Assembly (NCBI GenBank): GCA_913048215.1 | Contig: CAJWXC010000008.1 | Coordinates: 1-33,165, forward strand | Direction of reading: 5' to 3' | From: an uncultured Flavobacteriaceae bacterium | GTDB taxonomy: Bacteria > Bacteroidota > Bacteroidia > Flavobacteriales > Flavobacteriaceae | DNA length: 33,165 nucleotides | Shown here: in pieces, positions 7,325-17,670 of the stretch | Numbering within the stretch: the stretch's first letter is position 1 | How the letters are laid out: each line of letters opens with the position of its first letter | The notes under the pieces: model-generated | What the model saw: only the letters and a program-made list of their open reading frames with translations | What the model was told of the DNA's origin: nothing | The model's database searches: none | Position numbers and translations under genes: made by a program

Positions 7325-8677
7325 ATGTCCAAAGACATTAAGATTAAAAAGGGTCTTGCCATCCGCCTAAAGGGTGAAGCAGATAAATCACTTTCAAACG
7401 CACCGCGTTCACGCACCTTTGCTATTCGTCCTTCAGATTTCCACTTGTTTACACCAAAATTGGTGAAAAAAGAAGGGGATAAAATGCTCGCTGGAGAGAC
7501 CTTATTTTACAGCAAACAAAACCAGGCAATCACTTTTTCATCACCAGTAAGCGGTACCCTTACCAAGATTGAAAGAGGGCCAAAACGTGTAATTACATCT
7601 ATAACCATTGAAGCTGATCAAAAAGACACTTTTATGGATTATGGAGTAAAAACTCCAGAAAGCCTTTCATCTCAAGAAATTAAAGATCATTTACTTGCCT
7701 GTGGGTGCTGGCCTTTTGTAAAACAACGTCCTTATGATGTTATTGCAAATCCAAATAACAAGCCAAAAGCAATATTTATCTCTGGTTTGGCTACTGGAGC
7801 TTTAGATGCAGATCTAGATTTTGTTTTACAAGGAAAAGAAAAAGAAGTGCAAACCGCCATTACAGCACTTAGTAAACTAACAGATGGTGCTATTCACCTT
7901 ACTGTTGCAAAAGATAGCGTTTCTATGTTATCTGAGTTGAAACATGTTGTTTTACACAAAACAAATGTATTGCATCCTGCAGGAAATGTGGGTACACAAA
8001 TAAACAAGATAGATCCAATTAATAAAGGGGAAACTGTTTGGACGGTAGCTGCTCAAGATTTGGTAATTATTGGAGAATTATTTTTAACAGGAAAATACAA
8101 CGCAGAGCGTATTGTGGCTCTGGCAGGTTCTTGTATTAAGGCTCCAAAATATTATAAAACTAGAATTGGTAGTGAAGTTGCTACCATGATTTATGACTCT
8201 GGGCTTACTCAAGAAAATGTTCGCGTGATTAGCGGAGGTGTTTTAAGCGGAGATACCATTTCTCCAAAACTTCACCTTGGTTTTTATCACAATGCAATAA
8301 CAGTTATTCCTCAGGGTGATGATTATGAGTTTTTTGGCTGGAACAAGCCTGTGTTTGATAAAATCTCTCCATCAAGAGCGTTAACTTTTTCTTGGATGCA
8401 ACCCAAGAAAGAATTTGATTTAACAACAAACACCAATGGTGAGCATCGTGCTTTTGTTGTAACGGGTAATTACGAAGAGGTATTTCCTCTGGATATATAT
8501 CCTCTACAAATTTTAAAGGCTTGTTTGGTGAAAGATTTGGATGCAATGGAAGCCCTAGGAATGTATGAGGTGGCACCAGAAGATTTCGCCTTGACAGAAT
8601 TTGTATGTGTTTCAAAGCAGCCACATCAACAAATCATAAGAGAAGGATTAGACTTAATGTATAAAGAAATAGGATAA
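7325..8677 (+). CDS. nqrA: Na+-translocating NADH:quinone reductase subunit A
   Basis: First subunit of the six-subunit respiratory complex that oxidises NADH, reduces quinone and pumps Na+ out. NqrA is the cytoplasmic subunit that packs on NqrB and contributes to quinone binding; it has no covalent cofactor. The 450-residue length is usual. Typical segments are the N-terminal K-G-L-A-I-R-L-K-G with the R-P-S-D-F loop, the hammerhead-like S-P-V-S-G-T-L stretch, and the C-terminal M-E-A-L-G-M-Y-E-V-A-P-E-D-F-A motif near the end. It is the first gene after a well-formed promoter, with nqrB starting 3 bases after its stop. Confidence 0.97.
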   Translation: MSKDIKIKKGLAIRLKGEADKSLSNAPRSRTFAIRPSDFHLFTPKLVKKEGDKMLAGETLFYSKQNQAITFSSPVSGTLTKIERGPKRVITSITIEADQKDTFMDYGVKTPESLSSQEIKDHLLACGCWPFVKQRPYDVIANPNNKPKAIFISGLATGALDADLDFVLQGKEKEVQTAITALSKLTDGAIHLTVAKDSVSMLSELKHVVLHKTNVLHPAGNVGTQINKIDPINKGETVWTVAAQDLVIIGELFLTGKYNAERIVALAGSCIKAPKYYKTRIGSEVATMIYDSGLTQENVRVISGGVLSGDTISPKLHLGFYHNAITVIPQGDDYEFFGWNKPVFDKISPSRALTFSWMQPKKEFDLTTNTNGEHRAFVVTGNYEEVFPLDIYPLQILKACLVKDLDAMEALGMYEVAPEDFALTEFVCVSKQPHQQIIREGLDLMYKEIG

Positions 8678-8680
8678 GTT

Positions 8681-9889
8681 ATGGGTTTAAAACAGAATTT
8701 ACATACCTTAAAAATGAAGTACAAAGGTACCAAGATGGCTCCTGCGTTTAACGCGTTCCATACCTTTTTGTACTTGCCCAATGAGACTACCCATAATGGT
8801 ACTCACATCAAAGCAGCTGATGATTTAAAACGCACCATGAACATGGTTATCATGTCACTAGTGCCTTGTTTACTGTTCGGGATATTTAACGCTGGATATC
8901 AATACAATCTTCAAACAGAAGAGGTCACTAGTGCACTCAGCTTTTTTAGTACAGAGTTCTGGAACTTCTCAAACTTTACTATTGGCGCCTGGAAAGTGTT
9001 ACCACTTGTGGTAGTCTCTTATGGTGTTGGACTTATTGTAGAATTTATTTTTGCGGTTATAAAAGGTCATGAGGTAGAAGAAGGATATTTGGTAACGGGA
9101 ATGCTCGTACCTTTAATAGTTCCTGTAGATATACCGCTGTGGATGCTGTCTATAGCAGTTATTTTTGGTGTAGTGATAGGGAAAGAAGTCTTTGGAGGAA
9201 CTGGAATGAATATTTTAAATCCTGCCTTAACCATAAGAGCCTTTTTATTCTTTGCCTATCCAACTTGGATGTCTGGAGATAAAGTTTGGGTTACTGGCGC
9301 TGTAGATACAGTAGGGCAGCCTGATGCTATTTCTGGAGAGACCATTTTAGGATCATTGGCTCAAAATAATGGGTTTGGAGATTGGAGTATGATGGATCAA
9401 TTTTTAGGATTTATTCCTGGCTCTGTAGGAGAAACTTCAAAGCTTCTTATTATAGTTGGAGCCCTTATTTTAATTCTTTCAAAAATAGGTAGTTGGAGAA
9501 TCATACTAAGCACACTAGCCGGTGCTCTTTGCATGGGGCTTATCTTTAATGGTGTTGTAAACGCCGGATGGGTTACAGAGAGTTCTAAATTCTTTGGGCT
9601 TATGAGCGTTGATTTTTGGCAACATTTGTTTATTGGTAGTATTTTATTTGGTGCAGTATACATGGCAACAGATCCAGTTACAGCCTCTCAAACAAATAAA
9701 GGAAAATGGATTTACGGTTTTTTAATAGGTTTTATATCTATTATGATACGCGTGTTTAATCCAGCATATCCAGAGGGAGTATTCTTGGCTATTTTACTAA
9801 TGAATGTATTTGCACCAACGATAGATCACTACGTATTGGAAGGAAATATCAAGAAAAGAGCAAAACGTTTAAAACTAAAAACAGCTTAA
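8681..9889 (+). CDS. nqrB: Na+-translocating NADH:quinone reductase subunit B
   Basis: Polytopic inner-membrane subunit (402 residues, about ten helices) that carries covalent FMN and riboflavin and forms the Na+ path. The N-terminal cytoplasmic part (1-50) is followed by hydrophobic segments from residue 53. The expected FMN attachment site is the segment D-A-I-S-G-E-T (215-221), with T221 as the acceptor. In Vibrio enzymes this tetrapeptide is SGAT, so the Ala to Glu change at 220 is noteworthy. The G-G-T-G-M-N-I-L-N-P-A-L loop (182-193) is a family signature. It sits between nqrA and nqrC with gaps of 3 and 2 bases. Confidence 0.97.
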   Translation: MGLKQNLHTLKMKYKGTKMAPAFNAFHTFLYLPNETTHNGTHIKAADDLKRTMNMVIMSLVPCLLFGIFNAGYQYNLQTEEVTSALSFFSTEFWNFSNFTIGAWKVLPLVVVSYGVGLIVEFIFAVIKGHEVEEGYLVTGMLVPLIVPVDIPLWMLSIAVIFGVVIGKEVFGGTGMNILNPALTIRAFLFFAYPTWMSGDKVWVTGAVDTVGQPDAISGETILGSLAQNNGFGDWSMMDQFLGFIPGSVGETSKLLIIVGALILILSKIGSWRIILSTLAGALCMGLIFNGVVNAGWVTESSKFFGLMSVDFWQHLFIGSILFGAVYMATDPVTASQTNKGKWIYGFLIGFISIMIRVFNPAYPEGVFLAILLMNVFAPTIDHYVLEGNIKKRAKRLKLKTA

Positions 9890-9891
9890 TT

Positions 9892-10641
9892 ATGGCAGTT
9901 AATAAAGATAAAAACAGTTACACAATGATTTTTGCCGTTATTATGGTACTAGTTGTTGGTACATTATTGGCAGGATTTTCAAGCGGATTGAAGCCTATGA
10001 TTAAGGCAAATGAAAAGTTTGAAAAACAACAAAACATCTTATATGCTATGGGTGTTAATGATAATGTAGGGTCAGGTGATGTGGCTTTTATAGCTACAGA
10101 TAGAGTAGCAGATGCCTTTAACACCTATATCAAAGAGCAATTAGTTATTGAAGGGGCTACTTCCTCACAAAACGACAAGGCTTATTTAATAGATGTTAAA
10201 AAAGAGGGTGCAAAAGCAAAAAAAGCGGGTTATCAAAGAAAACTTCCTTTGTTTATCGGTGAAAAAGATGGTAAGAAATTATATATCATGCCGGTAAGAG
10301 GAAAAGGACTTTGGGATGCAATTTGGGGCTTTGTGGCTGTAGACAAAAGCATGACGGTACAAGGCGTGTATTTTGATCATAAAGGAGAAACACCAGGTCT
10401 GGGTGCAGAAATCAAACAGCGTTATTTTATGGATGATTTTATTGGAGAAAAACTCTTGGAAGGAACCACCTATAAGGGTATAAAAGTTGCCAAAGGAAAC
10501 AACGACCCAAAGAATATGATAAAAGACGATTATGAGGTGGATGCTCTAGCGGGTGCCACTATTACTGGAGATGGGGTTTCTGCAATGCTTAAAAAGGACA
10601 TTGCTATGTATGTTCCTTACTTTAAAACTATAAATAACTAA
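9892..10641 (+). CDS. nqrC: Na+-translocating NADH:quinone reductase subunit C
   Basis: Single-pass membrane subunit with a large periplasmic FMN domain. The anchor is residues 12-30 (M-I-F-A-V-I-M-V-L-V-V-G). The covalent FMN site is D-A-L-A-G-A-T (217-223), T223 being the acceptor, close to T225 of the Vibrio cholerae protein. The usual Ser two residues before Ala is here Ala. The preceding G-E-T-P-G-L-G-A-E segment (165-173) is a strong family signature of flavin domains attached by ApbE. At 249 residues it is of normal length. The flavin must be added by ApbE, encoded 6 kb downstream. Confidence 0.96.
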   Translation: MAVNKDKNSYTMIFAVIMVLVVGTLLAGFSSGLKPMIKANEKFEKQQNILYAMGVNDNVGSGDVAFIATDRVADAFNTYIKEQLVIEGATSSQNDKAYLIDVKKEGAKAKKAGYQRKLPLFIGEKDGKKLYIMPVRGKGLWDAIWGFVAVDKSMTVQGVYFDHKGETPGLGAEIKQRYFMDDFIGEKLLEGTTYKGIKVAKGNNDPKNMIKDDYEVDALAGATITGDGVSAMLKKDIAMYVPYFKTINN

Positions 10642-10645
10642 GAAG

Positions 10646-11293
10646 ATGGGATTACTTTCAAAAAAAGACACGCGGTTAATCTTAGATCCACTTGCAGATG
10701 ATAACCCAATTACCATACAAGTGTTAGGTATTTGTTCTGCCTTGGCTATTACAGCACAATTAAAGCCATCTATAGTAATGGCAGTTTCTGTAATATTTGT
10801 TCTTGGTCTGGGAAATGTAGTTATTTCACTGATGCGAAATATCATACCATCAAAAATTAGAATTATCGTGCAGCTAATTGTTGTTGCAACACTTGTAATT
10901 ATTGTAGATCAGGTATTAAAAGCATTCGCTTATGAGCTTAGTAAAGAACTATCTGTCTTTATTGGTCTGATAATTACCAATTGTATTATTATGGGGCGTT
11001 TTGAGGCATTTGCTTTGGGTAATGGACCTTGGAAATCTTTCCTTGACGGTGTAGGTAACGCGTTAGGATATGGTGTAATACTTATTATAGTAGGTTTCTT
11101 TAGAGAATTATTAGGCTCTGGAACTTTGTTTGGTTTCAAAGTATTGGGTGATTCTGTAGAGAAAACCGGATTGTATGCCATTGGTTATGAAAACAATGGT
11201 TTTATGGTCCTGCCTCCAATGGCCCTCATTGTGGTGGGTATTATTATATGGGTACAGCGCAGTAGAAATAGCGCATTAATTGAAGAAAACTAG
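10646..11293 (+). CDS. nqrD: Na+-translocating NADH:quinone reductase subunit D
   Basis: Six-helix inner-membrane subunit of 215 residues that forms an inverted-symmetric pair with NqrE. The two intramembrane cysteines that help hold the iron-sulfur centre between NqrD and NqrE are present: C30 in G-I-C-S-A-L-A and C113 in T-N-C-I-I-M-G-R, matching C29 and C112 of Vibrio cholerae. It starts 4 bases after the nqrC stop. Confidence 0.97.
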
Positions 11294-11322: not shown

Positions 11323-12069
11323 ATGTTAGAGCATATAGAATTATTTTTCAAATCAATCTTTGTAGACAACATGGTATTTGCATACTTTTTGGGTATGTGT
11401 TCTTACCTAGCGGTGTCAAAGAAAGTAAGTACCGCAGTAGGTCTTGGAGCAGCTGTTATTTTTGTATTAACAGTAACGGTTCCTTTAAACTGGTTTTTAG
11501 ATCAGTACATACTGCAGCCTGGAGCATTGGCTTGGCTTGATGGCAATCGTGAAACTCCAGAACTGAGCGCTTACGCAGATTATGATTTAAGTTTCTTATC
11601 CTTTATTTTATTTATTGCTACCATTGCAACTATGGTGCAGTTGGTAGAGATTATTGTTGAAAAATTTTCACCATCATTGTATAATTCATTGGGTATTTTC
11701 TTACCCTTGATTGCGGTAAACTGTGCCATTTTAGGAGGGTCATTGTTTATGCAATCAAGAGAAATTGAAACTGCAGCCTTGGCTTTAAATTATGGTTTTA
11801 GCTCTGGTATAGGATGGTTTTTAGCTATTGTTGCTATCGCTGCCATTAGAGAGAAAATAAGATATAGTAATGTGCCACCACCACTTAGAGGGCTTGGTAT
11901 TACCTTTATTATTACAGGGCTAATGGCCATTGGATTTATGAGTTTTGGAGGAATGTTAACCGGTGGAGAAGATGCCCCGACAACCCCTCAAGGACAAAGC
12001 ACTCAAACAAACACACTACCAGCCATTGAAAATGAAATAGAAACAACTCCATTTGTTGTTTCAGAATAA
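11323..12069 (+). CDS. nqrE: Na+-translocating NADH:quinone reductase subunit E, extended form
   Basis: Partner of NqrD in the membrane. The cysteines for the shared iron-sulfur centre are C26 (G-M-C-S) and C134 (V-N-C-A-I-L-G-G). At 248 residues it is about 50 longer than the roughly 198-residue Vibrio protein. The extra length comes from an insert of charged and polar residues between helices (about 62-88) and a Thr/Pro/Gln-rich acidic tail after the last helix (about 214-248). A 29-base gap precedes it, the largest inside the operon. Confidence 0.96.
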
Positions 12070-12081
12070 AAAATTAAGTAT

Positions 12082-13389
12082 ATGTTTTTAGCAGCAAGTA
12101 TTACAGGAGTTATCGCGGCAACAGTCATCGCTTTTTTGGTGTTGACACTTTTATTAGTTACGTTATTACTTTTTACAAAACAAAAATTATCTCCATCTGG
12201 TCCTGTGACTATTACTATTAATGGTGAAAAGGAAATTGAGGTTGCCAGTGGAAGTACCCTACTAACGACCTTAGGGGATAATAAAATTTTCTTACCATCT
12301 GCATGTGGTGGTGGTGGAACATGTATTCAATGTGAGTGTCACGTTCTTGAAGGTGGTGGAGAAGCATTGCCTACAGAGACTCCTCATTTTAGCAGAAAAG
12401 AACTCAAAGACGGTGCTCGTTTGTCTTGCCAGGTAAAGGTAAAACAGAACATGAATATCACCATTCCAGAAGAAGTTTTTGGCATAAAGAAATGGGATGC
12501 AGTGGTAGTGAGAAATTACAATGTAGCCTCTTTTATTAAAGAATTTGTAGTAGAGATTCCAGAGGACATGAACTACAAAGCGGGTGGATATATTCAAATA
12601 GAAATTCCTGAGTGTGAAGTAAAATTTGAAGATATGGATATCACCGCACATCCCCAGGAGCATGATACACCAGATAAATTTCAGGCAGAATGGGATAAAT
12701 TTGGTTTGTGGCCACTTGTGATGAAAAACAAAGAAGTAGTGGAGAGAGCCTATTCAATGGCTTCCTACCCAGCAGAAGGTCGTGAGATTATGCTGAACGT
12801 TCGTATTGCTTCCCCGCCTTGGGATAGAGCAAAAAACCAGTGGATGGATGTAAACCCAGGTATTGCATCTTCTTATATATTCAACCTTAAAAAAGGAGAT
12901 AAATGTGTTATTTCTGGACCTTATGGAGAGTTTTTTATCAATCCATCAGAGTCTGAAATGTTATACGTAGGGGGTGGAGCTGGTATGGCTCCAATGCGTT
13001 CTCACTTGTACCATCTCTTTAGAACCCTTAAAACAGGAAGAAAAGTGACTTATTGGTACGGAGGGCGTTCTAAGAGAGAATTGTTTTATTTAGATCACTT
13101 TCAGCAATTAGAAAATGACTTTCCAAACTTTAAATTTTATTTGGCACTCTCTGAACCTATGGAAGAAGATAACTGGAAAGTAAAAGATGGGATAGATGGA
13201 GACGGAGACGGTTTTGTTGGATTTATCCATCAAGTGGTTATAGATAACTATCTTGATTTGCACGAATCACCTGAAGATATTGAGCTTTATTTCTGTGGTC
13301 CACCTCTTATGAACCAAGCTGTTCAAAAGATGGGAGAAGATTACGGGATTCCTGATGAACATATACGTTTTGACGATTTTGGGGGATAA
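12082..13389 (+). CDS. nqrF: Na+-translocating NADH:quinone reductase subunit F
   Basis: Electron-entry subunit: takes a hydride from NADH onto FAD and passes electrons through a [2Fe-2S] cluster. In order it has an N-terminal membrane anchor (10-31), a ferredoxin domain with C75, C81, C84 and C116 (C-x5-C-x2-C...C spacing), and a ferredoxin-reductase module with the FAD motif R222-A-Y-S225, the nucleotide loop G-G-G-A-G-M-A-P (297-304) and the C-G-P-P-L-M-N segment near the C-terminus. The 435-residue protein ends in the typical F-D-D-F-G-G. It is the last gene before the operon terminator. Confidence 0.97.
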   Translation: MFLAASITGVIAATVIAFLVLTLLLVTLLLFTKQKLSPSGPVTITINGEKEIEVASGSTLLTTLGDNKIFLPSACGGGGTCIQCECHVLEGGGEALPTETPHFSRKELKDGARLSCQVKVKQNMNITIPEEVFGIKKWDAVVVRNYNVASFIKEFVVEIPEDMNYKAGGYIQIEIPECEVKFEDMDITAHPQEHDTPDKFQAEWDKFGLWPLVMKNKEVVERAYSMASYPAEGREIMLNVRIASPPWDRAKNQWMDVNPGIASSYIFNLKKGDKCVISGPYGEFFINPSESEMLYVGGGAGMAPMRSHLYHLFRTLKTGRKVTYWYGGRSKRELFYLDHFQQLENDFPNFKFYLALSEPMEEDNWKVKDGIDGDGDGFVGFIHQVVIDNYLDLHESPEDIELYFCGPPLMNQAVQKMGEDYGIPDEHIRFDDFGG

Positions 13390-13410: not shown

Positions 13411-13450
13411 TAAAAAACCGCTATCATATTTCTGATCGCGGTTTTTTTTT
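13411..13450 (+). terminator. Intrinsic terminator of the nqr operon
   Basis: An AACCGC...GCGGTT stem, continued after one mismatch by ATCA/TGAT, closes a 6-base loop and is followed by nine or more T. It lies about 25 bases after the nqrF stop. Confidence 0.88.
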
Positions 13451-13460
13451 GTCAAATTAT

Positions 13461-13484
13461 AATAACAAACTATATAGTGTTATT
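13461..13484. repeat. Imperfect palindrome upstream of the TPR-HTH regulator
   Basis: AATAAC, two unpaired A, then ACTATATAGT (self-complementary), then GTTATT. The whole is a 24-base dyad with a 2-base bulge, 92-115 bases before the regulator's start codon. It is AT-rich, so chance is possible; it has the form of an operator. Confidence 0.4.
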
Positions 13485-13575
13485 GGCAGAAAGTAAATTA
13501 TAACAAAAACGCCTAGACAATGTATGGGTATGTTTTTCAAATATTTGCTATTTTCGTGGTACTAACTCCGTTATA

Positions 13576-15297
13576 ATGCAACAGCTGCGTCTTTTTATAA
13601 TAGGTATTTTATGTATGTGTCTAAGTGTTTTTGTTACTGCAAACACAGAGGGCTTAACAGATATGCTTAGCTCAACCAATGATTCTATTAATTTAAAAAA
13701 GCGGGACTCTCTGCGACTAGCTCTAAGCATTCCAGTCAATGATTCTCTGTTAAATCGTGACGGTGCAACGCTCAGAAAAATATTTTTTAAATTATATAAC
13801 AAAAAATCTTTACAATATTATTCTCCTGATAAAGAAGAACTAAAAGACCTTATACAGAGCATCGAGTTATATGCCAAGCAAAAGAATGATGCTACATTAG
13901 GTTTTTTTATGATGTACACAAAAATAGTACTGAATTTAGATAACCTTTCTGAAAAAACATTAGAGCAGCATTATTTTGCCCTACATAGCCCTGCCAAAGA
14001 TTTAAATTTATATTGGTTACAATCTAAAATTGACTACCAGTTAGGAATTTTATATATTCGATCTAATCGTGTGTCTAAAGGATTTAATAGCTTATTTAGG
14101 GCACTCTATGTACTAGAAAATAATCTGTCAGATCCCGAAACAACCTATGATGTTATTTCCTATATTGGTTTGCTAGCCTACCAGCATGAACAATACCAAC
14201 TTAGTAAACGTTATTTTAAAAAGGCTGTTGATACAAAAAAGTATAAAAAACTAGGGGCATACAATAATTTAGCACTAGCTTATACTAGGTTAAAGATGTT
14301 AGATTCTGCAAATTATTATTTTAACTTAGAAAAACAATTTGCTATTTCTGAAAATGATGATGATTTTCTTATTATAGTAAATGGCAATATTGGTGAGAAC
14401 CTTTATCGAAAAGGTAACTCTAAAGCTGCATTGCCTTTACTTATCGCAGATGCTAATTATTCTTTATCTAAAAACTGGTTTGGTAATGCTTCAAATGCAT
14501 TAATTTATATATCTGCTTGTTATTTGGAATTAGATGAGCCAGCTAAGTCAGAACAATTTATGTGGAAGGCTTATCGGTTCGCAAAAAAAGACAACGAACT
14601 GAGAAGAATGAAGCCCATTTACAAGCAGCTTGCTAGATGGTATGCTTACAAGGGAGATGCTAATAAAACGCTTTTGTATAGTGATTCTTTACAATATGTG
14701 AGCGAACAGTTACACATTAAGTTTGATGAATTTTCTGGATTTGAAGCAGATAAATTAGTCAAGCTCAGTGCAAGTGAGTTAGAGCTATTACAAAAACAAA
14801 AACAACAAGAGGTGTCAAAAAAAGTCATATGGATTTTGGTGATTTCCAGTATCTTTACTATTGTTCTTTCGTTGCTATTGTTTGTGAACTTTAGGTCTAG
14901 AAAACTTTTAAAAGAAAAAAGCCTGGCTTTAAGCAACTCACAACTTAAAGGAAGGCTTGAGGATGCTACATCACAGCTAAACATATATTTAAAAGAAACT
15001 CAGCAAAAATTACTCATAGAAAAAGTAATACTAACTGATGCAGACTGGAGAGAGTTTCTTCAATTTTTTAATAAAGTATATCCCAGTTTTTTCTCGAGCA
15101 TAAAGCAGAAATACCCCAAGCTGTCTAAGGCAGAGCTGCGGTTTTGTTGCCTTAGTTATCTTTCTTTGTCTGACAAAGAGATGTCTGCAATGTTGGGAGT
15201 AGGTCGTGCTAGTATTAGAGTCACTAGGGGGCGTACAAGAGCTAAACTTCAGCTAACAGCAACAGATTCTTTAGAAAAACTACTTTTATTAATTTAG
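13576..15297 (+). CDS. Membrane-anchored TPR protein with C-terminal LuxR-like helix-turn-helix
   Basis: A 573-residue one-component regulator of a type common in Bacteroidota. It has a signal peptide or N-terminal helix (5-22), a periplasmic helical region with TPR-like repeats (about 100-385; for example A-Y-N-N-L-A-L-A-Y-T and Y-F-K-K-A), one membrane helix (417-437), a coiled coil (440-485), then a cytoplasmic DNA-binding domain (about 490-573) with a LuxR-like core L-S-D-K-E-M-S-A-M-L-G-V-G-R-A-S-I-R. There is no receiver or kinase domain, so the signal probably passes through the membrane directly to the HTH. The likely targets are unknown; the next genes downstream, beyond a 383-base gap, are candidates. 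Confidence 0.87.
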   Translation: MQQLRLFIIGILCMCLSVFVTANTEGLTDMLSSTNDSINLKKRDSLRLALSIPVNDSLLNRDGATLRKIFFKLYNKKSLQYYSPDKEELKDLIQSIELYAKQKNDATLGFFMMYTKIVLNLDNLSEKTLEQHYFALHSPAKDLNLYWLQSKIDYQLGILYIRSNRVSKGFNSLFRALYVLENNLSDPETTYDVISYIGLLAYQHEQYQLSKRYFKKAVDTKKYKKLGAYNNLALAYTRLKMLDSANYYFNLEKQFAISENDDDFLIIVNGNIGENLYRKGNSKAALPLLIADANYSLSKNWFGNASNALIYISACYLELDEPAKSEQFMWKAYRFAKKDNELRRMKPIYKQLARWYAYKGDANKTLLYSDSLQYVSEQLHIKFDEFSGFEADKLVKLSASELELLQKQKQQEVSKKVIWILVISSIFTIVLSLLLFVNFRSRKLLKEKSLALSNSQLKGRLEDATSQLNIYLKETQQKLLIEKVILTDADWREFLQFFNKVYPSFFSSIKQKYPKLSKAELRFCCLSYLSLSDKEMSAMLGVGRASIRVTRGRTRAKLQLTATDSLEKLLLLI

Positions 15298-15680
15298 CAA
15301 TTAATATCCTCTTGGTATATAGCTTTATTTCTCCCTATTTTTCTAATTTTTTTTAACTCATTCACAACATAGTTTTAATCGTAATTTGTTATTTCAAATA
15401 AATTTTTTCTCTGCAATGAGGCTCTAGTATTTATTTGTAATATACCATATACACACAAATACAACATCTTGTTACTTTTTGTTACAGAAATAACTTGAGA
15501 GTCTTTGTTTTTTGTCGTTAATTACACGCATTGATAAAAAAAATAAAAACATTTTTGTCTTTAAAATACTCAACTTTATAAAATTTTGAACATAATTTCA
15601 AATGCCTTATTCTAATCATTACCCAAATTTTACACACATGTTTACACACATGTTTACACATATTTTAAAAACCAAATAAA
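15298..15680. other. Long AT-rich intergenic region
   Basis: This 383-base gap holds no credible reading frame on either strand. It contains an AT-only 7-bp inverted repeat right at the regulator's stop (too weak for a terminator) and the 12-base direct repeats at its 3' end. No exact TAnnTTTG box is placed sensibly for the gene at 15681. It most likely holds the control region of that gene. Confidence 0.6.
15629..15664 (+). repeat. 12-base tandem repeat, three copies
   Basis: Unit TTTACACACATG occurs at 15629-15640 and exactly again at 15641-15652, with a third copy at 15653-15664 matching 10 of 12. The array ends 16 bases before the start codon of the small protein gene. Each junction contains the palindrome ACATGT, repeated at a 12-base interval, close to one helical turn plus. 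Confidence 0.8.
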
Positions 15681-15992
15681 ATGAATAAATACTCTACTGC
15701 TTATTTAAGTATATTCTTATTATTGTTTGTATCACTATGTGCTTATTCTCAACAGAATTTTAACACTAGTAACTCAATTTTGGTAGCTCAAAATTTGATA
15801 GAAATGGTGCCAATTAACAATACAAGTTTGTCTGTTCCTTTATCAAACTCCTATAACAATGGGGTAGGATATGTTATTTTTAGCGAAAGTGTTTTGGATG
15901 AAGACTCAAACAACTATAGCGATTATATTTACATTTCATTATTAGCTATTTTGGCAATATTTTGTTTGTATAAACTCTTTAGAAAAGAATAA
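15681..15992 (+). CDS. Small exported membrane-tail protein of unknown function
   Basis: I do not recognise this 103-residue protein. It has a clear signal peptide (residues 1-24, ending C-A-Y-S-Q-Q), an Asn/Ser-rich extracytoplasmic stretch of about 55 residues, a C-terminal hydrophobic helix (about 82-100, Y-I-Y-I-S-L-L-A-I-L-A-I-F) and a short basic end (K-L-F-R-K-E). Signal peptide plus C-terminal helix plus basic tail is the layout of sorting-type tails, but I see no recognisable sorting motif. It follows the 12-base repeats and precedes a 41-residue membrane peptide by 17 bases, probably in one transcript. Confidence 0.7.
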   Translation: MNKYSTAYLSIFLLLFVSLCAYSQQNFNTSNSILVAQNLIEMVPINNTSLSVPLSNSYNNGVGYVIFSESVLDEDSNNYSDYIYISLLAILAIFCLYKLFRKE

Positions 15993-16009
15993 GCCAGTAA
16001 AATTAAATT

Positions 16010-16135
16010 ATGAAACTAAATAATAAACTTAGACAAGGTCGTAGTGAGGAGCATGCCAAAAGAAATGAGAGGTGTATTACCTTGGCTTTTTTTATTGGTG
16101 TATTTTTAACTATTCTTGTTTTTATTATTAGTTAA
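16010..16135 (+). CDS. 41-residue single-pass membrane peptide
   Basis: A short frame with ATG at 16010 and TAA at 16133-16135. The first 21 residues are strongly basic and polar (M-K-L-N-N-K-L-R-Q-G-R-S-E-E-H-A-K-R-N-E-R). The rest is one hydrophobic helix (about 24-40) ending I-I-S. By the positive-inside rule the basic end is cytoplasmic. It begins 17 bases after the stop of the previous small membrane protein, which supports co-expression. No family is recognised. The amphipathic basic segment joined to a helix argues for a real gene, but its length keeps this tentative. Confidence 0.5.
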   Translation: MKLNNKLRQGRSEEHAKRNERCITLAFFIGVFLTILVFIIS

Positions 16136-16300
16136 TAATAATACTTATTTAGTCTATTTAATTAATGCTATCTATCACGTTAAGTTAAAAAAACTTTTTC
16201 TTTTTAATCCAAAAAGGTGATAAGAAGATATTTTTGTCATGCCTTCCTAGATAAATCACATTACCGTATTTTTGTATTGAATTACTCTAAAAAACCTTAC

Positions 16301-16663
16301 ATGCCTCAAGAGCTTACCAAACAAGAATTGCACAATCTTGCCATGAATATTGTAGGAGAAGATATGAAATCTCAGGGATTTGAGTTTTTGGGTGTCAATA
16401 GTAAAATTGGTAAAGATCCCCAGTTTGTAGGTTTAAAAAACAAAGATTTACATTTTGTTATTGTACGCGTTAGTCATTATCCCGATGATGCCAACACCTA
16501 CGATCCTGTATTTATGCAAACCATAAAAGAACACGCCAATGGTTTTGAGGCTAAAACTTATTACGCTGGTGTTGGTCTTGGGCATGGTACTGATTACGCA
16601 AAACCAGTTTTAAAAGATCAAGAGTATACTATGGTTTATAAAGGATTACAGGAAATCAAATGA
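16301..16663 (+). CDS. Small protein translationally coupled to apbE (uncharacterised, often labelled NQR-associated)
   Basis: A soluble protein of 120 residues with no signal peptide. I chose the ATG at 16301 (M-P-Q-E-L-T-K-Q-E-L-H-N-L-A-M-N) because upstream codons encode an unconserved Arg/Phe-rich stretch. From memory, similar proteins in Flavobacteriaceae genomes carry the label NQR subunit F, but this one has none of the NqrF cysteines or flavin and NAD motifs, so that label should not be taken literally. Its stop overlaps the apbE start by 4 bases (ATGA), which argues for a joint role, perhaps in flavin delivery to NqrB or NqrC. The function is inferred from position only. Confidence 0.75.
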   Translation: MPQELTKQELHNLAMNIVGEDMKSQGFEFLGVNSKIGKDPQFVGLKNKDLHFVIVRVSHYPDDANTYDPVFMQTIKEHANGFEAKTYYAGVGLGHGTDYAKPVLKDQEYTMVYKGLQEIK

Positions 16664-17670
16664 AAAAATTATTTGCCCTTTTATTTTTTGTAGTTTTTAT
16701 TTCTTGTACTGACACCCATTTTTTAGAAAAAAAAGTATTGCAGGGAAATGCCTTTGGTACTACCTACACCATACAGTATTTTACCAATTCAAATTTTGAT
16801 GCTCAAAGGCAAATAGACTCAGTATTATATAGGGTTAATAAGTCTATGAGCACCTATATTTACCAGAGTGATATTTCAAAAATAAATAGAGGAGATAGCA
16901 CCATTGTTGTAGACGCTTTGTTTAAAGATGTATGGCAAATATCTCAGAGGGTACATACAAACTCTTTGGGCTATTTTGACCCCACGATTGGTAGCCTTCG
17001 TAATTTGTACGGATTTGGAGACACCCCTTACCTGGAGACCATAAATGCTCGGGTTTTGGATAGTGTTAGGGCTTTGGTCGGTTTTAATAAAGTAGCCATT
17101 AAAAAAGATGGTACCGTGCATAAAGACAATCCAGATATATATCTAGACTTTAATGCGGTAGCAAAAGGCTATGGTATTGATTGTTTAGGCAATATGTTGA
17201 GTAGTTATGGTATTACAGATTATATCATTGAGCTAGGAGGTGAGGTTTTAGCTAAAGGAAAAAATATTTCTAAAAATAGACCTTGGACAAGTGGTGTAGA
17301 GGCTATTATCTCTGATATAGATAATAGAAAAGCGGTGGTATATTTTACCCTTAAAGACCGTGGATTAGCAGGCTCTGGAAATTACAGAAAATACCGAATT
17401 GATGATAACACAGGTAAAAAGTATGTACATACCATAAACCCCTTAACAGGTCTTGCACAACAAAACAATATTACAAGTGCAACTATAATAGCACCTACAT
17501 GCGCCTTAGCAGATGCCTATGCAACTGCGTGTATGGCCATGGGTTTTCAAAAAGCCAAAGCAATGCTTGATAGATTAGAAAATATTGATGGGTATTTGAC
17601 TTACCTCGATGCTAATCAGGCTTCTCAAAGCTACACCACCAAAGGATTTGAAAATCTAATTTTAAAGTAG
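16660..17670 (+). CDS. apbE: FAD:protein FMN transferase, lipoprotein
   Basis: Transfers FMN from FAD to a Thr or Ser of target proteins such as NqrB and NqrC. The 336-residue protein has a lipoprotein signal (C16 in F-I-S-C-T-D) placing it outside the inner membrane, where the NqrC flavin domain also lies. Family motifs in order are F-D-P-T-I-G-S-L (106-113), D-F-N-A-V-A-K-G-Y-G (163-172), E-L-G-G-E (191-195), H-T-I-N-P-L-T-G (257-264) and A-D-A-Y-A-T-A (284-290), the last binding Mg2+. Its start overlaps the previous stop by 4 bases. Its end lies 3 bases from the convergent methyltransferase stop, with no terminator visible between them. Confidence 0.95.
   Translation: MKKLFALLFFVVFISCTDTHFLEKKVLQGNAFGTTYTIQYFTNSNFDAQRQIDSVLYRVNKSMSTYIYQSDISKINRGDSTIVVDALFKDVWQISQRVHTNSLGYFDPTIGSLRNLYGFGDTPYLETINARVLDSVRALVGFNKVAIKKDGTVHKDNPDIYLDFNAVAKGYGIDCLGNMLSSYGITDYIIELGGEVLAKGKNISKNRPWTSGVEAIISDIDNRKAVVYFTLKDRGLAGSGNYRKYRIDDNTGKKYVHTINPLTGLAQQNNITSATIIAPTCALADAYATACMAMGFQKAKAMLDRLENIDGYLTYLDANQASQSYTTKGFENLILK

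What the first reader, a model, noticed from the sequence alone, without database searches (positions are those of the whole stretch)
16301..17670. Uncharacterised small protein coupled to apbE
A 4-base start-stop overlap ties a 120-residue soluble protein to the FMN transferase, with the nqr operon close by. It has none of the NqrF cofactor motifs, so any subunit F label on relatives would be a mis-annotation. It may be an assembly or flavin-supply factor of Na+-NQR.
Basis: partly seen in the sequence, partly recalled or inferred. Interest (0 to 1): 0.6.

Follow-up and report, generated by a model that had tools for sequence, protein, structure and literature searches.

The report
Nuclease-fold protein paired with apbE
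A small protein of marine flavobacteria, made together with the enzyme that attaches flavin to the sodium-pumping respiratory complex, has the predicted shape of a DNA-cutting enzyme that has lost its cutting site, and its steady place beside the pump genes suggests that it helps build or control the pump.

Summary
Window 16301-16663 (+) encodes a 120-residue soluble protein (X) whose TGA overlaps the ATG of apbE, with nqrABCDEF upstream. X belongs to a real conserved family without a Pfam or NCBIfam model and is not NqrF.

New here: two AlphaFold2 models (pLDDT 87.9, 94.0) give the PD-(D/E)XK nuclease fold; best solved matches are a tRNA-splicing endonuclease (Z 10.0) and Hjc (Z 9.9). The metal-binding signature is gone: by alignment to YraN, Glu, Asp and Glu become Met15, Gln41 and Ile/Val/Leu54; Met15 and Gln41 are invariant in 95 of 95 members.

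The nqr link is strong, not absolute. In a one-per-genus family sample, 110 of 110 genomes with both genes on one listed contig have X downstream of nqrF, same strand, within 17.5 kb. Two genomes keep X-apbE without NqrF or NqrB; many NQR-bearing lineages lack X.

X looks cytosolic and ApbE exported, so direct flavin supply is unlikely. Best guess (inferred): a cytosolic NQR biogenesis factor on a dead nuclease fold.

The parts
16301..16663 (+). X: 120-residue soluble protein, predicted PD-(D/E)XK nuclease fold without the catalytic residues
16660..16663 (+). ATGA: stop of X overlapping start of apbE; same in-frame overlap in 32 of 80 related loci
16660..17670 (+). apbE, FAD:protein FMN transferase with lipoprotein-type signal
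   Evidence: PF02424 E 9.5e-70; signal read by eye
16267..16274 (+). TAnnTTTG, flavobacterial sigma-A -7 box candidate before X (TATTTTTG; the same box precedes X in L081 and L082); another copy at 16229-16236
   Evidence: consensus from passages of PMC9723704
13412..13450 (+). terminator-like hairpin with T run just after nqrF
   Evidence: read from the sequence; such hairpins in 39 of 39 short nqrF-X gaps of relatives
12082..13389 (+). nqrF
   Evidence: TIGR01941 E 6.8e-167
11323..12069 (+). nqrE
   Evidence: position and similarity; name recalled
10646..11293 (+). nqrD
   Evidence: position and similarity; name recalled
9892..10641 (+). nqrC
   Evidence: position and similarity; name recalled
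8681..9889 (+). nqrB
   Evidence: PF03116 match at 8789-9850
7325..8677 (+). nqrA
   Evidence: position and similarity; name recalled
13449..16253 (.). 2.8 kb between nqrF and X that is absent from the nearest named relative (L081)
   Evidence: blastn of window against L081

Best explanation
X is a cytosolic biogenesis factor of the Na+-translocating NADH:quinone reductase of flavobacteria. It has a PD-(D/E)XK nuclease fold whose metal site has been replaced by a conserved non-acidic pocket (His11, Met15, Asn16, Ser34, Pro40, Gln41), and it would use that pocket or its sheet face to bind an NQR subunit or cofactor on the cytosolic side (NqrA, NqrF, or the cytosolic face of NqrB/D/E) during assembly. 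It is made in a fixed ratio with ApbE through the overlapping stop and start codons, so that cytosolic maturation by X and periplasmic flavinylation by ApbE are supplied together. Shown by computation: the gene and overlap, conservation, fold prediction, loss of the carboxylates, the nqr link. Inferred: the cytosolic place, the binding partner, the role in assembly, the matched dosage.
For: Fold: two models from different queries (pLDDT 87.9 and 94.0) match Hjc and tRNA-splicing endonucleases (VIA Z 10.0/9.9, rmsd 2.3/2.2 over 83/92 residues; Z 9.7/9.6); one member matches YraN models collinearly though weakly (PRK14688 7-65 to 6-64 of 121, E 0.0028; TIGR00252 18-89 to 18-87 of 123, E 0.024); hhalign to UPF0102 E 3e-4 for one target. 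Dead site: Met15, Gln41, Ile/Val/Leu54; Met15 and Gln41 in 95 of 95. Partner: X-apbE within 300 bp in 78 of 80 nearest loci; nqrF within 300 bp upstream in 39 of 80 and within 8 kb in 51 of 63 evaluable. Family sample: 110 of 110 same-contig genomes have X after nqrF on the same strand, 33 bp to 17.5 kb away, 37 under 300 bp; 11 more have them on different contigs. Co-occurrence 15/0/1/14 in 30 family genomes (Fisher 2e-7, relatedness ignored). X follows two divergent nqr operon types (NqrA about 60-94% or about 50% identical).
Against: No direct sign of a contact with any NQR subunit; complexes could not be modelled. Two genomes keep X-apbE without NqrF or NqrB. With NqrB counted, the family-sample table (170/26/2/1) is not significant (p 0.36), as nearly all its genomes have nqr. 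NQR works without X in many lineages: 49 of 68 order genomes with NqrF lack X. X is away from apbE in 9 of 20 order genomes and away from nqrF in some families (about 50 kb in G054, G070, G003). The 14 double absences are of one genus (g2).
Confidence: 0.42

Rival explanations
1. X is a nucleic-acid-binding regulator, or a metal-independent ribonuclease of the tRNA-splicing-endonuclease type, acting on transcripts of the nqr/apbE region.
For: Nearest solved folds are nucleic-acid enzymes, top-ranked a tRNA-splicing endonuclease, an enzyme class that needs no metal (recalled). [quoted passage not shown] In G072 and G030 X abuts a DEAD-box RNA helicase gene.
Against: X is acidic (mean net charge -2.5, median pI 5.9, n 95; 29 YraN-type proteins average -0.1). 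The helicase neighbour was seen in two genomes of one genus only. No DNA-binding domain. Fold does not show function.
Confidence: 0.22
2. X is a stable, lineage-specific seventh subunit of NQR on the cytosolic side.
For: Constant place after nqrF in the family (110 of 110 same-contig genomes); no cofactor motifs and few cysteines, fitting a structural part.
Against: X often has its own predicted promoter, and a terminator-like hairpin lies between it and nqrF (39 of 39 short gaps), unusual for a stoichiometric subunit; it is coupled to apbE, a maturation enzyme, not to nqr genes; absent from many NQR-bearing genomes.
Confidence: 0.14
3. X serves flavin supply or works on ApbE itself.
For: X-apbE is the most constant pairing among the nearest loci (78 of 80) and survives in G232 and G251, where NqrF and NqrB were not found.
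Against: ApbE has an export signal, X has none; the ApbE review states a periplasmic place for most ApbEs (passages, PMC12052999). Order genomes with apbE but no X are common (75 of 99 have apbE, 20 have X). X and apbE lie apart in 9 of 20 order genomes.
Confidence: 0.1
4. X has a general role outside NQR and merely shares a conserved gene neighbourhood.
For: X-apbE kept without NqrF or NqrB in two genomes; other neighbours of X in places: a DUF4846 gene in 15 of 80 loci, OsmC in G003, a DEAD-box helicase.
Against: Within genus g2 X was found in 2 of 3 NqrF-bearing genomes and in 0 of 14 without NqrF; strand and order relative to nqrF are kept in 110 of 110 same-contig genomes.
Confidence: 0.12

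Closest known systems
YraN / UPF0102 (PF02021, TIGR00252), PD-(D/E)XK superfamily
   Same: About 120 residues, same predicted order of helices and strands, collinear weak profile matches.
   Different: No PF02021 hit; Glu/Asp/Glu of the metal site replaced; YraN-type genes were found in 60 of 61 phylum genomes, X in a restricted set; the window's own genome has both.
Archaeal Holliday-junction resolvase Hjc (1gef, 2wcw)
   Same: Fold: VIA Z 9.9, rmsd 2.2 over 92 residues.
   Different: No sequence-level match in the PDB search; the catalytic carboxylates of the superfamily motif are absent.
tRNA-splicing endonuclease (2zyz, 3ajv, TSEN)
   Same: Best fold match (2zyz_C, Z 10.0).
   Different: No sequence match; whether X carries that enzyme's own catalytic residues was not tested.
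NqrM (DUF539, PF04400), NQR maturation factor of Vibrio
   Same: Small protein encoded beside apbE after nqrF (passage of PMC12174285); proposed similar role.
   Different: NqrM is membrane-bound and serves an iron-sulfur site; X is soluble and nearly cysteine-free.
NqrF
   Different: No similarity.

Membership tests
PD-(D/E)XK nuclease superfamily (fold) | Mixed four-stranded sheet flanked by helices (alpha-beta-beta-beta-alpha-beta core) | tested here: met
   Two AF2 models and VIA/Foldseek matches; prediction only, and Foldseek E never reached 0.001 (best 1.2e-3)
PD-(D/E)XK nuclease superfamily (active nuclease) | Acidic metal-binding residues and Lys of the bipartite motif | tested here: not met
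   By alignment to UPF0102: Asp to Gln41 (95 of 95), Glu to Ile67/Val18/Leu10 at 54, helix Glu to Met15 (95 of 95), Lys to Arg79/Lys14/Gln2 at 56
YraN / UPF0102 | Match over curated cut-off of PF02021 or TIGR00252 | tested here: not met
   No Pfam family for window X, PF02021 not among the families matched by the 16 members; TIGR00252 at 14.6 bits against a cut-off of 69.05 in one of 16
NqrF | TIGR01941 match; FAD, NADH and 2Fe-2S motifs | tested here: not met
NqrM | Membrane-bound protein of the PF04400 family | tested here: not met
   X has no membrane segment and no Pfam match
tRNA-splicing endonuclease | Its metal-independent catalytic residues | not tested
   Residue-level structural alignment was not available; fold match only
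NQR assembly factor (function) | Loss of X impairs NQR activity or assembly | not testable with these tools
   Needs a deletion strain
NQR-linked gene | Presence tracks nqr across genomes | tested here: inconclusive
   Strong in 30 family genomes of the phylum sample (15/0/1/14) and in the order sample (19 of 20), but 2 X-bearing family genomes lack NqrF and NqrB and the NqrB-corrected family table is not significant

The most novel reading that the evidence does not exclude
A dead PD-(D/E)XK nuclease domain has been recruited as a dedicated cytosolic maturation factor of a respiratory sodium pump, doing in flavobacteria the job that NqrM does in Vibrio, with a new pocket in place of the nuclease metal site.
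Probability: 0.12. Interest if true: 0.8.

Novelty: new variant of a known kind. Interest (0 to 1): 0.5.

Why it matters
NQR carries unusual cofactors and only two helper proteins were named in the review passages seen (ApbE and NqrM; PMC12174285). How flavobacteria, abundant in the sea, build the pump is open. X is a concrete, testable candidate: small, soluble, conserved, always at hand for deletion or co-expression. If confirmed it would also be a striking reuse of a nuclease fold in bioenergetics.

Tried and rejected
Rejected: X as NqrF or an NqrF fragment. X as an active nuclease of the usual metal-dependent kind. X as a phage or defence protein: no PADLOC match for 2 proteins, PHROGs only 0.035-0.067 for two of 3 proteins, no plasmid match. 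X as a simple tail gene of the nqr operon: hairpin and promoter-like box in between in many relatives.

Led nowhere: PDB sequence search with either alignment, best E 0.35 and 0.67, unrelated chains. NqrM search: 0 of 99 genomes, but no control genome rang, so absence is not shown. Pfam scan of 16 members: only scattered weak hits, best 0.014 to Flavodoxin_1 in one member and 0.027 to B12-binding in two. NCBIfam scan of 16 members also gave weak hits to an NqrC model in 3 members (best E 0.0051), a FlaF model and corrinoid models; I treat these as chance, but they are of the same strength as the YraN ones, which I credit because several YraN-type models match collinearly and the fold agrees (that the PRK14674/14675/14678/14688 models are YraN-type is recalled). 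Global hhalign to UPF0102 gave probability 2 and local 40, so sequence alone would not decide. Literature: searches showed no paper on X in their listings; this is a held open-access library only.

Rows dropped: from the 20 order hits, L010, L016 and L017 were missed by my motif pattern and L020 is broken, so alignment A1 has 16; L082 duplicates L081 in A2 (80 rows with the window). In one search I entered 148 X rows, one per genome, of 172 X genomes (second copies in G221 and G256 left out); 27 had no listed NqrF row. The 80 loci are the nearest relatives of a capped scan, so counts on them are biased to close kin. Shuffle controls keep base composition only.

Full report
The thing itself. 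Window 16301-16663 (+) codes for X, 120 residues, and its TGA shares four bases with the ATG of apbE at 16660. apbE is confirmed by PF02424 and nqrF at 12082-13389 by TIGR01941. X has no Pfam or NCBIfam match at E<=1. The window's own genome (83% complete, 151 contigs) has one copy.

A real family. X was found in 20 of 99 genomes of the order, the window's own included, 172 of 199 of the family sample and 17 of 296 of the phylum sample, two of them weak and partial. A capped scan of named genomes gave 565 relatives, of which the best 80 were kept. Named carriers include Aequorivita, Ulvibacter, Dokdonia, Leeuwenhoekiella, Christiangramia, Salegentibacter, Mesonia, Robertkochia and Muriicola. 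In 95 distinct members His11, Met15, Asn16, Gly19, Ser34, Pro40, Gln41, Phe52, Val55, Val91 and Gly92 never vary.

Fold. AlphaFold2 on the window protein with 79 relatives gave pLDDT 87.9 and pTM 0.81, with elements helix-strand-strand-strand-helix-strand-strand. A second model, of the Muriicola protein with 33 relatives, gave pLDDT 94.0 and pTM 0.86 and the same elements. In both, the highest ranked solved structures are of the nuclease fold: tRNA-splicing endonucleases, Hjc, TSEN, SPARDA nuclease domains, VRR_NUC, XisH. Best values are VIA Z 10.0 (2zyz_C, rmsd 2.3 over 83) and 9.9 (1gef_E, rmsd 2.2 over 92). Caveats: no Foldseek match reached E 0.001 (best 4.6e-3 and 1.2e-3), and the tool notes that best Z of 7 to 8 is common by chance; the unanimity of the list is what persuades. 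Sequence support is weak but consistent: collinear sub-threshold matches to YraN-type models and hhalign to 29 UPF0102 proteins (E 3e-4 for a single target, probability 40). That alignment sets Gln41 on the catalytic Asp, position 54 (Ile 67, Val 18, Leu 10) on Glu, position 56 (Arg 79, Lys 14, Gln 2) on Lys and Met15 on the helix Glu. The E-(V/I)D-E(V/I)K motif of the YraN group is given in passages of PMC1189080. So the metal site is lost, while the residues that replace it are fixed, which suggests a pocket put to another use (inference).

Link to nqr. Order sample: 68 of 99 genomes have NqrF over the cut-off, and 19 of 20 X genomes are among them; the exception, G077, is 67% complete and has an NqrB fragment. 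Family sample: NqrF in 193 of 199; of 172 X genomes 170 have it. The six without NqrF were checked for NqrB, except G002: G210, G254 and G278 have NqrB and lack X; G232 and G251 have neither and carry X-apbE. Phylum sample: 55 of 296 have NqrF; the 15 clear X genomes are all of the window's family and all have NqrF; the 39 NqrF genomes outside the family have no X. Within the family part of that sample (30 genomes) the table is 15 both, 14 neither, 1 NqrF only, 0 X only. In genus g2 alone it is 2, 14, 1, 0. Fisher p values (2e-7 and 0.022) ignore relatedness, and the 14 double absences are all of genus g2.

Position. In the family sample (nearly one genome per genus) coordinates were listed for X in 148 genomes and for NqrF in 121 of these. 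In 110 both are on one contig, and in all 110 X lies downstream of nqrF on the same strand, 33 bp to 17.5 kb away (37 under 300 bp); in 11 they are on different contigs. In the 80 nearest loci apbE follows X within 300 bp in 78. Outside the family the arrangement loosens: in the order sample apbE lies within about 160 bp of X in 9 of 20, within 3 kb in 2 and not near in 9, and in one family (f15) apbE stays beside nqrF while X is elsewhere. So co-occurrence with NQR outlasts the pairing with apbE.

Transcription. All 39 nqrF-X gaps under 300 bp hold a terminator-like hairpin (13.8 expected from shuffles) and 29 hold TAnnTTTG (4.0 expected). Of 79 loci with enough upstream sequence, 53 have TAnnTTTG within 60 nt of the X start, and in 31 it begins 11-14 nt before the ATG, 26 at exactly 12 (shuffles 0.29). 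Since the flavobacterial -7 box spans -12 to -5 (passage, PMC9723704), these transcripts would start at the ATG, that is leaderless, a class that made up 5.5% of mapped mRNAs in F. psychrophilum (same passage). In the window the nearer box starts 34 nt before the ATG, so a short leader is expected there. In 15 of 80 loci X instead abuts a DUF4846 gene.

How it probably works. X has no export signal; ApbE has a lipoprotein signal, and most ApbEs act in the periplasm (passages, PMC12052999). X therefore should not meet ApbE's active site or the flavinylated faces of NqrB and NqrC. The cytosolic side of NQR is where NqrA, NqrF and part of the intramembrane 2Fe-2S site would be reached (recalled architecture). 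A cytosolic biogenesis factor whose dosage is tied to ApbE fits best (0.42). Rivals: nucleic-acid binder or metal-independent RNase (0.22), seventh subunit (0.14), unrelated role (0.12), flavin supply (0.10). The acidic charge of X (mean -2.5) speaks mildly against nucleic-acid binding.

Compared with what is known. X shares the fold of Hjc and YraN but fails the catalytic test of the superfamily and the family cut-offs of YraN. It is not NqrF, nor NqrM, which is membrane-bound (passage, PMC12174285). Inactive PD-(D/E)XK domains are known (passage, PMC1189080); one tied to a respiratory ion pump was not in the listings of my searches. I rate it a new variant of a known kind.

Noticed in passing
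window 13576-15297: 573-residue TPR protein with a C-terminal part weakly like BT3442-family/HTH models, lying in the 2.8 kb that separates nqrF from X here but is absent from L081.
   Followed up: partly
window 15681-15992: 103-residue ORF with a hydrophobic start and a hydrophobic end, no Pfam match.
   Followed up: no
L084, L086, L087, L088, L091, L093, L094, L095, L097, L098, L105, L118, L120, L127, L133: A DUF4846 gene (PF16138 in the three tested) abuts or overlaps the start of X in 15 of 80 loci, giving DUF4846-X-apbE.
   Followed up: partly
L176 6337-7692; L178 7372-8730: In two genomes of one genus (G072, G030) X directly follows a DEAD-box RNA helicase gene.
   Followed up: partly
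G122, G221:C94, G256:C14: Two X copies per genome in three family genomes; in G221 and G256 both lie on one contig about 1 kb apart, after nqrF.
   Followed up: no
L020 (G070:C2:276630-276959): X copy interrupted by two TAA stops; the surrounding genes also look broken.
   Followed up: no
L197 1297-2082, L198 1288-2067 (minus strand): Distant X-like domain as the C-terminal half of 261- and 259-residue proteins in another family (f31); no Pfam match; NqrF not found in these two genomes.
   Followed up: partly
L235 (G429): A genome of genus g2 with a divergent nqr operon (NqrF 56% identical) followed by apbE and no X, perhaps acquired separately.
   Followed up: partly
L081-L160: Two divergent nqr operon types occur in the family (NqrC about 60-95% or about 40-44% identical to the window's), and X-apbE follows both.
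   Followed up: partly
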